Assembly (NCBI RefSeq): GCF_002155265.1
Contig: NZ_CP021251.1
Location: 186,001-250,000, forward strand
Reading direction: 5' to 3'
DNA: 64,000 nt
DNA from: Corynebacterium pseudotuberculosis
GTDB taxonomy: Bacteria; Actinomycetota; Actinomycetes; Mycobacteriales; Mycobacteriaceae
Shown here: positions 19,812 through 24,621 of the stretch, in pieces
How the letters are laid out: every line of letters begins with the position of its first letter
Position numbering within the stretch: position 1 is the first letter of the stretch
Program-made: the position numbers and the translations under genes
The notes under the pieces: generated by a model
Told to the model about the DNA's origin: nothing
Databases searched by the model: none
Seen by the model: only the letters and a program-made list of their open reading frames with translations

Positions 19812-20069
19812 TGCATGCCTTCCTGTCTATGTTCCACATGAAGTAAATGAGCATACCAGCAATAGAATCTGATATTTTTATGTGACAGGGGCGGGTCTGG
19901 CCGGGGTCTGGGGTTGCGATCCTGCATTTCCATAGACAAAGAGGCGTTATGGGGCATGATTTTGGGCTTTTGTCTATGGAAATGCAGGATCTGTCGGTGG
20001 TAAGGATGACAGGGCGGCGCGGTAACACACAGAAAAACAGGCCAGCAATCCAATGGGTCACTAGCCTGC
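19812..20069. other. Intergenic region holding a strong inverted repeat
   Basis: No plausible gene is seen between the DUF4185 start and the island boundary. The only structured element is the inverted repeat at 19918-19991. The promoter of the DUF4185 gene should lie in the first 100 bases. Confidence 0.5.
19918..19991. repeat. Perfect 23-bp inverted repeat
   Basis: 19918-19940 and 19969-19991 are exact reverse complements (arms begin GATCCTGCATTTCC) separated by 28 nt. No T tract follows in either direction, so it is not a normal terminator. No flanking target duplication is seen. It could be a small RNA hairpin, a protein-binding cruciform, or a miniature element. Confidence 0.8.
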
Positions 20070-20097
20070 TCTCAATGGTCGGGATAACAGGATTTGA
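20070..20097. other. Distal attachment-site copy of the tRNA-Pro island
   Basis: These 28 bases are identical to 24539-24566, which is the last 22 bases of tRNA-Pro plus six downstream bases. The match stops sharply at 20098 (G here, A at the tRNA). A perfect copy of a tRNA 3' end away from the tRNA is the classic mark of site-specific integration by a tyrosine recombinase. Confidence 0.85.
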
Positions 20098-21036: not shown

Positions 21037-21951
21037 TCAGGTATCCTTGCCATAAATGCTCGATAGGGTGTCAAGAAGCGAATTTTTCTCGTATCGCATT
21101 TCGCGTATTTCTTCGGGTTTCAATCCGCATTGCATCAACTCGCCAACAGAAATTTCCCCGGATTTCAAGATCAATTTCACGCCATCAATAACAGCCTGAG
21201 CTGATTCTATTCTCTCGTTATTGTCAAAAGTAATATCCTCGATTTTTCTACCTTTACTAAGGTTCAGTGATACATGGACCAAATACTTTATCCTCTGGCG
21301 AGGAAATGCCAGATGCAGTTCCGTCATATGAAACTATCCCGTCTTTCATAATGACTACACGATCGGATATTTTTCTACGATTTCGATCTGGTGCGAGCTG
21401 AACAATATTGCGGCACCGCTGGCAGCGTATTCCCGTAGAAGATACTGAAAACGATCAACAGCTAAAGGATCAAGGCCTGAAAAGGGTTCGTCTAAAACCA
21501 ACAACTCTGGCGAATGAATTAAAGCAGAAGCAATCTGGATCCGTTGCTTGTTTCCTAGCGACAGTTCCTTAACTTTTGAGTCGGCGAATTGGGATACTTC
21601 AAGCTTATCCAGGAGTTCTTTAATTCGAGGCTTCATTTTCTCCTTCGGTATTCGGTGTAGTCGCGCAAAGTAGCGGAGCTGGTTGACCACAGTCTCATCA
21701 GAGTAAAGTCCACGTTCTTCAGGCATATATCCGACACCTCGAACTGAATCGGGAGCAATTTTCTGCCCCGCAACTAAGACCTCACCTATGTCTGGTTTCA
21801 TGAGCCCGAGTGCGATTCTCATCGAAGTAGTCTTGCCCCCACCGTTTGAAGCAAGCAGGCCAACTATCTCGCCGCGATCCACGGAAAAATTTACGCCTTT
21901 GAGCACCTGTTTTGAGCCGAAACTCTTCTGTACGTTATCGAATTTAAGCAA
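21037..21951 (-). pseudogene. ABC transporter ATP-binding protein, NatA-like, with two compensating frameshifts
   Basis: The first part (21951 to TAG 21355) has Walker A ASNGGGKTTSMR, signature ELSLGNKQRIQIASALI, Walker B ELLVLDEPFSGLDPLA and SSHQ. Then the frame is lost at a five-T run (21370-21374, five A in the gene). Adding one base restores EKISDRVVIMKDGIVSYDG in the other frame. A second shift near 21290-21330 returns to the first frame, which then reads KYLVHVSLNLSKGRKIEDI to the end at 21037 (DTLSSIYGKDT). The intact protein would have about 305 residues, normal for NatA/bacitracin-type ATPases. The Walker A has Asn-Gly-Gly-Gly rather than the usual Asn-Gly-Ala-Gly, still acceptable. 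Confidence 0.82.
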
Positions 21952-22170
21952 GCTATATCCTTGTTTCTGGCTGATTGTCGTACGAAAGTAGGGGCCACTG
22001 TGGCACAGCAGAAATATTTCTTTAGATAATTTTTTGATTAAAACCGAGCACGATTCTAACTTTCTTTACAGCTATCATCGTCAGCAACATCCCTTACTTG
22101 AAACTATAACCAATAGTGTTCAATGCGGGGGTGTACCCTCTTTAGCTCTAACTCATTAAAAGGACCCATT
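21952..22170. other. Divergent intergenic region between the ABC genes and the peptide gene
   Basis: 219 bp without a gene. It should carry promoters for both directions. TTGAAA at about 22099 on the plus strand could be a -35 box for the peptide gene. I see no clear operator. Confidence 0.4.
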
Positions 22171-22370
22171 ATGCAGGTTTCCGAGTATCTAAACTCATAG
22201 AGCATCGATTTTGATGCAAATGAATACTCACGTCCCGTCACTCACGTCCCGTCACCTCGGCTGCAGCTGCTCCTGTTGTTGCAACATGCTGGCAGGTTGC
22301 CGGCGGTGTAGCTGGCTTCACTGCCGTCATCGGAGGAGCCGTGGCAGCTTACACTGCCACCAAGAGATAG
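22171..22370 (+). pseudogene. Inactivated bacteriocin-like hydrophobic peptide gene
   Basis: ATG 22171 has AAAAGGA seven bases upstream and reads MQVSEYLNS, then TAG at 22198, then in the same frame SIDFDANEYSRPV. A 14-bp tandem duplication (22226-22239 and 22240-22253, ACTCACGTCCCGTC) then shifts the frame. Removing one copy gives EYSRPVTSAAAAPVVATCW followed by QVAGGVAGFTAVIGGAVAAY and TATKR, with stop at 22368-22370. The ancestral product had about 66 residues: an acidic leader-like half and a glycine/alanine-rich hydrophobic half with GxxxG-like spacings (GGVAG, GGAVAA), as in unmodified class II bacteriocins. An ABC exporter lies divergent next to it. Family assignment is by pattern only. 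Confidence 0.65.
22226..22253. repeat. 14-bp tandem duplication that breaks the peptide gene
   Basis: Two exact adjacent copies of ACTCACGTCCCGTC. Fourteen is not a multiple of three, so the duplication moves the downstream part out of frame. Confidence 0.9.
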
Positions 22371-22400
22371 TCCCTTTCATATTCCAGCAGCGATACTTCT

Positions 22401-22419
22401 ATAGGTAAGGTTAACCTAT
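22401..22419. promoter_or_regulatory. DtxR-box-like palindrome
   Basis: ATAGGTAAGGTTAACCTAT matches the 19-bp DtxR consensus (TTAGGTTAGSCTAACCTAA) at 15 positions, with symmetric ATAGGT/ACCTAT arms. It overlaps the ATG (22418) of a 19-residue frame, MKSISDVLSASTFPSSIQK, ending at 22477. DtxR is the iron-dependent repressor of corynebacteria. Functional binding is inferred. Confidence 0.45.
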
Positions 22420-22477
22420 GAAATCTATCTCCGATGTCCTGAGTGCATCTACTTTTCCGAGCTCGATTCAGAAGTAA
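22418..22477 (+). CDS. Possible short leader peptide or gene fragment
   Basis: ATG 22418 to TAA 22475-22477 encodes 19 residues (MKSISDVLSASTFPSSIQK). GTAAGG lies about ten bases upstream. Just after it another frame stays open to about 22540 (SELDSEVNHEVAKTDHPKRM), so this may be the start of a second small gene disrupted by a frameshift. Function unknown; it may equally be chance. Confidence 0.25.
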   Translation: MKSISDVLSASTFPSSIQK

Positions 22478-22596
22478 ATCATGAAGTAGCCAAAACCGAT
22501 CATCCGAAGAGAATGCAACGTTGCGTTAAACGAACGAGACGTTGAAGCTGGTATCTGTTTTTCGCTGCAGAGTCTCGGACGACCCCTACTGCAAGA

Positions 22597-22634
22597 AGCG
22601 ATCTCCTTTATCGACTGATATAGAGATCGTTTTT
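22597..22634 (+). terminator. Rho-independent terminator in the island
   Basis: CGATCTC (22599-22605) pairs with GAGATCG (22623-22629), extended by G-T and A-T pairs, and is followed by a five-T run. It would end the transcript of the peptide gene region. Confidence 0.65.
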
Positions 22635-22965
22635 CGGTCAAGTGTTTATGCCGTGTCGTGGGCGATATCCTGAAGACGGCTTCCTTATCCTGCGTGGTTA
22701 CGGGATGACCAAGGCGCGCCCAGTTTCGTCGAGGCCGCTGCGCAATGAAGAGAAATCGGTAGATCCATGCAGAGAACTATGGTGTTTGAATATGGTATGT
22801 CGTGGCTCGTGTTGGCTGGGGTGTTCCTATGCTTTTGTGAAGCCTTTCCATCATCTTGGATAGTGGAAACTGGGGGGTATTTCGGCCGTATGTGTAAGGC
22901 GCCGGTGAGTCTTAGCCCGCTGGCCTTTGCTTTTGTTTCAAGTAGTGATTGTGTGGCGATATTTC
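22635..22965. other. Unassigned stretch left of the IS element
   Basis: 331 bp between the terminator and the outer inverted repeat. Short frames exist on both strands but none has a ribosome binding site or a recognisable motif. It is probably decayed mobile DNA. Confidence 0.4.
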
Positions 22966-23065
22966 GGGTTAAGCAGCAAAAGTGTGTCTGCTTTTGATGA
23001 TTGCTACTGGTCAACGCACACAAATCGGCGTGGAATAGGCCTTTGGGAGTTATTTCACATCGATT
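22966..23065. repeat. Outer inverted repeat, left arm
   Basis: About 100 bp resembling the reverse complement of 24396-24490. Shared blocks include GGGTTAAG, GCAAAA, GTGTGTC, TACTGGT and GGCGTGGAATAG. It lies just outside the IS256-type terminal repeat at 23066. Confidence 0.65.
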
Positions 23066-24395
23066 GAGGGTGTCAGTCCGTTTGCGTACGGGGGCTGATT
23101 TGCAAGTATAAAGCGAACCAGCCGGGGTATACCACGGAAAGCTGATTGATAGCCTGCTTCCCATTAGTCGCCCTACTACCTTCGATCAGCCGCTTGGCTG
23201 AAACAAAAACCTTGGCTCCTTCTCTGGCACGGCGGACAGCTCGATGGAATTCGTGGTGTAGATAACCTTCCTAGCTGACGGCGGGAACTGCAGGAACGGG
23301 ATGAATTTATCCCATGCCTCGCGCCATACTTTCATTGATTGCGGATACTTCTGACCAAGCTCACTGGCTTCGAACTCCTCGAGTGCTGCGCGGGCCTTAT
23401 CGTCATTAACAGCGGTATAGATTGCTCGGCAGATACTTCGCACTGCTTTTCGGTTACCGTAGACTACCCACCGGTTGGCGGCACGAATCAGATGGACAAC
23501 GCAGGTCTAGATCATCGAATCTGGCTACGTTGCTTGGATTGCCTCAGGAAAGCCTTTGAGCCCGTCGCAGCAAACGATAAAGACATCGCTGACACCGCGG
23601 TTGGCAATTTTCTGCACACACCTGCGGCCAGAACGTTGCTCCCTCATTGGTGGTACCCCATAGCCCCAAAATGTGTTTGATGCCTTCCATGTTCACACCA
23701 ACAGCCATGTAAACGGCCTTGTTGACTACGCGCCGGTTGTCGCGGATCTTCACGCGTAGCGCGTCAAGGAAAATTACTGGGTAGAACTCGTTGAGTTGCC
23801 TGGTCTGCCACACGGTGACTTCTTCAAGGACTGCATCGGTGACTGCGCTGATGGTATCCGGCGACAGATTTACCCCCGTGGTTGTGGCCAGGTGGTGTTC
23901 GATGCCGCGCACGGTCATTGCACCGGCGTACAGGCTGATGATCATGTCATCAAGGTCGGTGAGTCTGCGGCTGCCTTTGGGGACCATACGCGGCATGTAG
24001 GTGCCAGACCTATCGTGAGGAACACTACTATCGACAGGTCCGTAGGCTGAGTCCACCGTCATGAGATACGAGCCGTTGCAACTGTTGCCTGACCAACAGC
24101 GTCTTTGCCCGCGCGGTCACCATGTTCGTAGCTAAGGTGAGCATCCATTTCTGTATTCAACCCGGTGTTGATCGTGGCCTGCAGCAAACCACGCACTAGC
24201 TCGTTAGCGTCGGAGGTTGATTCGCCCAGCTCTTGGATGAGCTTGGTGGTTTCGGGATTGTTCATCAGCCGGCGGCTGATGTCAGCGACGCGCTCAGTGT
24301 CAGCATGTTTCTTCGGGGGACGCAACAGTCATTGTTGCGTACTCTCCTTCGTGATTGGGGTTTTAACCCTCATGCACAAAGAGTCCGACACCCTC
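23066..24395 (-). mobile_element. Degenerate IS256-family insertion sequence
   Basis: Terminal repeats start with GAGGGTGTC at 23066 and at 24395 (reverse strand). The 1330-bp length fits the IS256/Mutator family. The left-end sequence recurs as a scar at 39290-39385. No perfect target-site duplication is visible. Confidence 0.7.
23186..24325 (-). pseudogene. IS256/Mutator-family transposase, broken by several frameshifts
   Basis: The N-terminal piece (24325-24059, ending in HLSYEHGDRAGKD) is followed in another frame by 24062-23544 (RRLTDLDDMIISLYAGAMTV, FLDALRVKIRD with the first catalytic Asp, VYMAVGVNMEGIKHILGLW). The next block encodes a VCCDGLKG-like segment with the second Asp in a further frame. 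Then 23443-23186 carries VWREAWDKFIPFLQFPP and YTTNSIE with the catalytic Glu. All DDE residues are recognisable but lie in at least three frames, so the enzyme is inactive. The overall length matches an intact transposase of about 400 residues. Confidence 0.85.
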
Positions 24396-24490
24396 GCGTG
24401 GAATAACCCCTGGGAGCTATTCCACGCCGTTTTAGATAGGTTCACCAGTAACAACCGCTAGAAACGGACACACTTTTTGCTACTTAACCC
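24396..24490. repeat. Outer inverted repeat, right arm
   Basis: This is the inverted counterpart of 22966-23065. It contains its own hairpin, CGTGGAATA with TATTCCACG (24397-24405 and 24418-24426). The nested arrangement suggests that the true element is longer than the GAGGGTGTC-bounded part, or that one element sits inside another. Confidence 0.6.
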
Positions 24491-24501
24491 CAAACAAAGG
24501 A

Positions 24502-24538: not shown

Positions 24539-24539
<1 letters not shown>
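24502..24539 (-). terminator. tRNA-Pro terminator, a perfect 38-bp palindrome
   Basis: The two 19-bp arms are exact (24502-24520 and 24521-24539). On the minus strand it begins five bases past the tRNA 3' end and is followed by TATTCCTTTGTTTGG. Its last base overlaps the att repeat. Confidence 0.75.

Positions 24540-24621
<82 letters not shown>

What the first reader, a model, noticed from the sequence alone, without database searches (positions are those of the whole stretch)
22171..22370. Fossil of a bacteriocin-like peptide gene, killed by a 14-bp tandem duplication and an amber codon
Deleting one copy of the 14-bp repeat restores a peptide of about 66 residues with an acidic leader-like half and a Gly/Ala-rich hydrophobic half with GxxxG-like spacing. 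It has a good ribosome binding site. It is too broken for normal gene finders. A divergent ABC exporter adjoins it.
Basis: partly seen in the sequence, partly recalled or inferred. Interest (0 to 1): 0.75.

Follow-up and report, generated by a model that had tools for sequence, protein, structure and literature searches.

The report
Relic of a corynebacterial bacteriocin gene
A short broken gene beside a proline tRNA looks like the remains of an antimicrobial-peptide gene related to intact ones in other actinobacteria, left behind after most of its production machinery was lost.

Summary
In detail: a perfect 14-bp tandem duplication (22226-22253), an amber codon (22198-22200), a good ribosome-binding site before ATG 22171, and a Gly/Ala-rich open frame at 22224-22367.

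That unaltered 48-residue piece ranks first of 1892 six-frame window pieces against a profile of an actinobacterial precursor-peptide family built without it. It also aligns with an intact Streptomyces californicus peptide better than all 20000 shuffles. The family sits in linaridin-type clusters (HTTM protein, alpha/beta hydrolase, LinL-like protein, exporter), one of which matches published corynaridin. So this is most likely a dead linaridin-type precursor. Its own PxxxTP motif is missing, and HTTM and LinL-like genes were not found in its genome.

It lies between perfect 28-bp repeats of the tRNA-Pro 3' end, with an ABC-2 pair (ATPase gene frameshifted, permease intact) and a decayed IS256-type element. 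A sister species keeps the intact ABC pair without the peptide.

One database protein of undisclosed source fits an allele with one more 14-bp unit, so the duplication may belong to a variable array rather than a single killing event. Verdict: a degenerate new member of a known kind, of modest interest.

The parts
20070..20097 (.). left copy of a perfect 28-bp direct repeat of the tRNA-Pro 3' end (att-like border of the island)
   Evidence: shorter copy (19 bp shared) at the same border in the sister locus L053
20206..21033 (-). ABC-2 permease gene (275 aa), intact
   Evidence: PF12698; 99% identical protein in sister G067; dN/dS 0.027 against the sister
21037..21951 (-). ABC ATPase gene, frameshifted into two open pieces (21355-21951 and 21037-21327)
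   Evidence: two single-base differences from the intact sister gene
22159..22164 (+). Shine-Dalgarno-like AAAGGA before ATG 22171
22171..22200 (+). start of the precursor relic: nine codons and the amber codon at 22198-22200
   Evidence: resemblance to family leaders only weak (rank 31 of 4913 starts)
22226..22253 (+). two perfect copies of the 14-nt unit
22224..22370 (+). core frame of the precursor relic (48 residues, stop to stop) with its stop codon
22418..22477 (+). 19-codon frame that may be the leader of a second precursor
   Evidence: rank 20 of 4913 starts; suggestive only
22978..24477 (-). decayed IS256-type element: transposase in three frames (23186-23443, 23544-24062, 24059-24325) between 61-nt, 75% complementary inverted repeats
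24539..24566 (.). right copy of the 28-bp direct repeat, overlapping the tRNA 3' end
24545..24621 (-). tRNA-Pro (CGG)

Best explanation
The locus is the relic of a linaridin-type bacteriocin cluster on a small tRNA-Pro genomic island. When whole, such clusters encode one or more precursor peptides, membrane and hydrolase-type proteins thought to mature them, and an exporter; a separate ABC-2 pair probably protects the producer. Here one precursor gene remains, broken by an amber codon and by a 14-bp array that puts leader and core out of frame. A possible second leader and the ABC-2 pair also remain, the ATPase frameshifted and the permease intact. HTTM and LinL-like genes are gone from the genome, and a decayed IS256-type element lies next to the relic. 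Shown here: the lesions, the homology of the core piece, the cluster context in relatives, the flanking repeats, and no HTTM or LinL-like match in this genome. Inferred: the protective role of the ABC-2 pair, the order of decay, and any part played by the insertion element.
For: The core piece ranks first of 1892 window pieces against a profile of 20 relatives built without it (15.3 bits; next 6.4); 4 of 20000 shuffles are as good. Against an intact S. californicus precursor it scores 77, with 0 of 20000 shuffles as good and the next window piece at 46. The relatives were reached through the neighbouring permease, not through the peptide. The permease orthologue in G031 sits in a cluster of two such peptides with HTTM, hydrolase, methyltransferase and exporter genes. 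G055 matches the published corynaridin cluster. Perfect 28-bp repeats overlap tRNA-Pro. Island genes have dS 0.118-0.18 against 0.548-0.929 for four flanking genes.
Against: The PxxxTP motif of linaridin precursors is absent (best is PVVATC). Plain BLASTP between P0001 and the two G031 peptides is not significant (E 0.26 and 0.17). The profile of the 59-aa type does not recognise the piece (2918 of 20000 shuffles as good). The open-database search with the piece found only P0001. A direct search of 242 genus genomes gave only weak matches outside the own genome (best E 6.4e-4), and the 13 of them that I inspected did not look like small peptide genes. In G031 the ABC-2 pair lies downstream and in the same direction, not divergent.
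Confidence: 0.8

Rival explanations
1. The relic comes from an unmodified (class II or leaderless) bacteriocin, or from another kind of modified peptide, rather than from a linaridin-type precursor.
For: Gly/Ala-rich hydrophobic core; no PxxxTP motif; no maturation genes left in the window; no Pfam or NCBIfam family matched the peptide. In two Streptomyces plasmids the HTTM/hydrolase genes lie beside lantibiotic dehydratase genes, so that gene set is not tied to one peptide type.
Against: The closest intact relatives found lie in clusters with HTTM, hydrolase and LinL-like genes.
Confidence: 0.1
2. The 14-bp array is a length-variable switch and the locus is a phase-variable bacteriocin gene rather than a fossil.
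For: P0001 fits one more unit of the array; the unit length is not a multiple of three.
Against: An amber codon lies upstream in this genome; HTTM and LinL-like genes are absent; P0001 is a single protein of undisclosed source and could be another assembly of a near-identical strain.
Confidence: 0.05
3. The Ala/Gly-rich frame is a chance open frame, and no peptide gene was ever there.
For: It is short, and the open-database search with it finds only P0001.
Against: Profile and pairwise tests against shuffles and against all other window frames; strong ribosome-binding site; permease-linked clusters with the same kind of peptide.
Confidence: 0.03

Closest known systems
Corynaridin (CrdA) of Corynebacterium lactis, a type B linaridin (PMC9927463: abstract, introduction and passages seen)
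   Same: Same genus; small precursor beside HTTM, alpha/beta hydrolase, LinL and ABC transporter genes; the cluster is visible here in G055 (L064)
   Different: Intact; carries PxxxTP and a Thr-rich core; no NatAB-type pair seen in the stretch fetched; active against other corynebacteria according to the paper
Two-peptide cluster of G031 (L054), whose 65-aa peptide is identical to P0002, labelled Corynebacterium propinquum
   Same: Orthologous ABC-2 pair (permease 43% identical) and two small Gly/Ala-rich precursors
   Different: Peptides intact with PVTATP and PVMATP; maturation and export genes present; ABC-2 pair downstream in the same direction
Streptomyces californicus plasmid precursor (L069:3849-4040, minus strand)
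   Same: 18 of 30 aligned core residues identical, including ATCW
   Different: Intact, with PVLATP and neighbouring hydrolase, LinL-like and methyltransferase genes

Membership tests
linaridin-type precursor | PxxxTP motif at the leader/core border (as described in PMC9927463) | tested here: not met
   best candidates in the core frame are PVVATC and PVTSAA
linaridin-type precursor | homology to precursors of such clusters | tested here: met
linaridin-type precursor | LinL, HTTM and alpha/beta hydrolase genes in the cluster | tested here: not met
   no HTTM (E <= 1e-6) or LinL-like/methyltransferase (E <= 1e-8) match in the own genome; hydrolase not searched in the whole genome, only in the window
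linaridin-type precursor | dedicated ABC exporter in the cluster | tested here: not met
   none between the repeats; 15 ABC matches elsewhere in the genome, best 27% identical, not distinguishable from general ABC proteins
linaridin-type precursor | dehydrated Thr/Ser in the product | not testable with these tools
   needs mass spectrometry of a product
tRNA-targeted genomic island | direct repeats, one at the tRNA 3' end | tested here: met
   perfect 28-bp repeats, 4469 bp apart
tRNA-targeted genomic island | own integrase gene | tested here: inconclusive
   no integrase domain among the seven island protein pieces scanned; not every open frame was scanned
class II bacteriocin with double-glycine leader | GG cleavage site and peptidase-type exporter | not tested
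   no dedicated search was made; the adjoining ABC genes are ABC-2 type

The most novel reading that the evidence does not exclude
The 14-bp array at the leader/core border is a length-variable switch that places a linaridin-type precursor in or out of frame in different strains, so that bacteriocin production would be phase-variable in this species while the ABC-2 pair stays on as constant protection.
Probability: 0.05. Interest if true: 0.6.

Novelty: new member of a known kind. Interest (0 to 1): 0.35.

Why it matters
It adds a decayed linaridin-type precursor on a tRNA island to a genus in which bacteriocin production has been called a neglected trait (PMC9927463, abstract). It also gives a testable picture of decay: peptide broken, HTTM and LinL-like genes gone, ABC-2 permease still strongly constrained (dN/dS 0.027 against the sister), and a sister species that keeps the intact ABC pair alone. 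If the pair is the self-protection system, this is protection outliving its bacteriocin. Of the 59 related peptides, 31 carry a source name, and each of those names is a 'hypothetical protein' one.

Tried and rejected
Empty or rejected. The window's own frame 22214-22405 has no homologue. Permease and P0001 searches of genome contigs and viral contigs gave no relatives; the tool warns that records near the window's genome may be left out. The S. californicus peptide gave no match in 396 genomes of the phylum at E <= 1e-6; that says little, since the own genome with the relic is not found at that cut-off either. It matched only 2 S. californicus records among the plasmids. The locus DNA was found in 1 of 201 genus genomes, the own one. 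In the direct protein search of 242 genus genomes, 204 had a match at E <= 1; I inspected 13 of the weak ones and judged them unrelated. RNA folding around the array is unremarkable (z -0.63); no promoter consensus was found, and the one terminator-like site is no more than chance gives. My first label for the HTTM/LinL-like module was 'SDP-like' (working notes); I replaced it after reading PMC9927463. Of 17 plasmid records with an HTTM match I fetched 10. Two of the 10 have a divergent ABC ATPase/permease pair upstream of tandem small genes, one of them with a sigma-factor gene in between; two have no annotation in the stretch. From the 59 proteins I left out 5 (P0003, P0006, P0015, P0027, P0035) when building the two profiles, of 20 and 34 sequences. 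The first hmmsearch run failed on an option clash and was repeated. A first test of the second leader used a start off by one and was redone.

Full report
WHAT IS THERE. The sequence carries ATG 22171 with AAAGGA upstream, TAG after nine codons (22198-22200), two perfect copies of a 14-nt unit at 22226-22253, and a Gly/Ala-rich open frame at 22224-22367 ending in TAG. The duplication is the only exact one with a unit of 8-59 nt in the window; 0 of 200 simulated windows had one with a unit of 14-59 nt. The ribosome-binding site is among the best 19 of 1107 plus-strand ATGs.

WHERE IT IS. The window is part of a single-contig genome of 2,337,763 bases. The genus is Corynebacterium by inference. 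Same-genus genome G031 encodes a peptide identical to P0002, labelled Corynebacterium propinquum, and same-genus G055 carries the cluster described for C. lactis.

ISLAND. A perfect 28-bp direct repeat lies at 20070-20097 and 24539-24566; the right copy overlaps the 3' end of tRNA-Pro, 24545-24621 minus. Between the repeats are an ABC-2 permease and ATPase (minus strand), the peptide relic, and an IS256-type transposase in three frames between 61-nt imperfect inverted repeats. No integrase domain appeared among the seven island protein pieces scanned. In the nearest genome, G067, the ABC pair is present at 93.7% DNA identity between shorter copies of the repeat (19 bp shared), while window 22035-24495 is missing; the chromosome on either side is 84.6-86.5% identical. 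The permease differs from the sister's by dS 0.118 and dN 0.0032 (ratio 0.027), the first part of the ATPase by dS 0.18; four flanking genes have dS 0.548-0.929. The ABC part of the island therefore has a younger common origin than the chromosome around it, and the permease has stayed under constraint. In the window the ATPase gene has two single-base differences that break its frame, whereas the sister's is intact. They lie in short runs of one base, so sequencing error is possible.

FINDING RELATIVES WITHOUT USING THE PEPTIDE. A search of 242 genus genomes with the permease gave G067 (99% identical), G196 (45%) and G031 (43%) before a drop to 34%. In G031 the pair belongs to a cluster of two small peptides (65 and 59 aa), an HTTM protein, an alpha/beta hydrolase, a methyltransferase with an N-terminal domain that stands alone in other clusters, and an ABC exporter. 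The HTTM protein and that N-terminal domain occur together in 4 of 242 genus genomes (G031, G055, G203, G066) and not in the own genome. In G196 I saw no such cluster beside the pair. The two G031 peptides retrieve 59 proteins with E from 2.6e-30 to 0.051; the named ones come from Corynebacterium, Streptomyces, Kitasatospora, Clavibacter, Modestobacter, Micromonospora and Glutamicibacter.

IS THE WINDOW PIECE A RELATIVE? A profile of 20 peptides of the 66-aa type, with neither the window nor P0001 in it, puts the window core first among 1892 six-frame pieces (15.3 bits, E 0.0019; next 6.4 bits); 4 of 20000 residue shuffles score as high. The profile of 34 peptides of the 59-aa type does not recognise it (1.0 bit; 2918 of 20000 shuffles as good). 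Plain BLASTP of P0001 against the two G031 peptides is not significant (E 0.26 and 0.17). The strongest test came later: an intact S. californicus plasmid precursor aligns with score 77, where 0 of 20000 shuffles reach that (maximum 65) and the next-best window piece scores 46; 18 of 30 aligned residues are identical, including ATCW. With the same query, among 7613 six-frame pieces of the genus loci the own-genome copy of the core scores 77, the G031 peptides 73 and 58, and the next unrelated piece 49. The S. californicus peptide lies beside a long alpha/beta-hydrolase gene, a LinL-like protein, a methyltransferase and an ABC gene.

WHAT FAMILY. PMC9927463 (abstract, introduction and passages) describes corynaridin of C. 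lactis: a 69-aa precursor with PxxxTP at 29-34 in a six-gene cluster with HTTM, alpha/beta hydrolase, LinL, ABC transporter and short-chain oxidoreductase genes. G055 shows a 69-aa peptide with PMTCTP at 29-34, then HTTM, hydrolase, a 186-aa protein without a Pfam family, an ABC transporter and an oxidoreductase-like gene. 'LinL-like' rests on this position and on sequence similarity between these proteins, as no library model named it. So the family is linaridin-type. The window relic lacks PxxxTP (PVVATC at best) and lacks HTTM and LinL-like genes, so I call it a linaridin-type relic by homology, not a linaridin. Two of 10 plasmid stretches fetched (S. globosus, S. flavofungini) have a divergent ABC ATPase/permease pair before tandem small genes, the layout of the window. 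Their permeases gave no match to the window's at E <= 0.01, so that likeness may be convergent. In two other stretches the HTTM/hydrolase genes lie beside lantibiotic dehydratase genes.

THE ARRAY. P0001 is the only database protein matching the core piece. Its first 14 residues match the window frame from 22214 in 13 of 14, and its last 42 match the core frame in 42 of 42, as if one more 14-nt unit were present. Copy number thus seems to differ between at least two sequences. The source of P0001 is not shown; it may be another assembly of a near-identical strain. With an amber codon upstream and the maturation genes gone, a working switch is unlikely here; I keep it as the most novel reading at 5%.

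LEADERS. The nine codons before the TAG rank 31 of 4913 starts for likeness to three Streptomyces leaders. The 19-codon frame at 22418-22477 ranks 20 of 4913 for likeness to four leaders of second peptides; the best single comparison is reached by 92 of 20000 shuffles, another by 1218, and two are at chance level. Both are hints, not results.

NOVELTY. No paper in the held library contains the string APVMATP. One paper holds both 'linaridin' and 'Corynebacterium pseudotuberculosis'; its only mention of linaridin is the corynaridin reference. 29 papers hold 'Corynebacterium pseudotuberculosis' and 'bacteriocin'; I saw passages of two, and neither describes this locus. Linaridin clusters in Corynebacterium are in print, and the main survey of linaridins is not held. 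This is therefore a degenerate new member of a known kind.

Noticed in passing
window 20070-20097 and 24539-24566: Perfect 28-bp direct repeat, one copy overlapping the tRNA-Pro 3' end, bounding a 4.5-kb segment shared in part with a sister species at unusually low dS.
   Followed up: yes
window 22978-24477: Decayed IS256-type element: transposase in three frames between 61-nt, 75% complementary inverted repeats.
   Followed up: partly
window 19918-19991: Perfect 23-nt inverted repeat with a 28-nt loop just outside the left island border.
   Followed up: no
L067, L069, L073, L074 (Streptomyces plasmids): Intact tandem small-peptide genes next to HTTM/hydrolase, LinL-like and methyltransferase genes, annotated as hypothetical proteins; apparently linaridin-type clusters with two or three precursors.
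   Followed up: partly
L072 and L075: HTTM and alpha/beta hydrolase genes beside lantibiotic dehydratase and lanthionine synthetase C genes, so the gene set also accompanies other peptide types.
   Followed up: no
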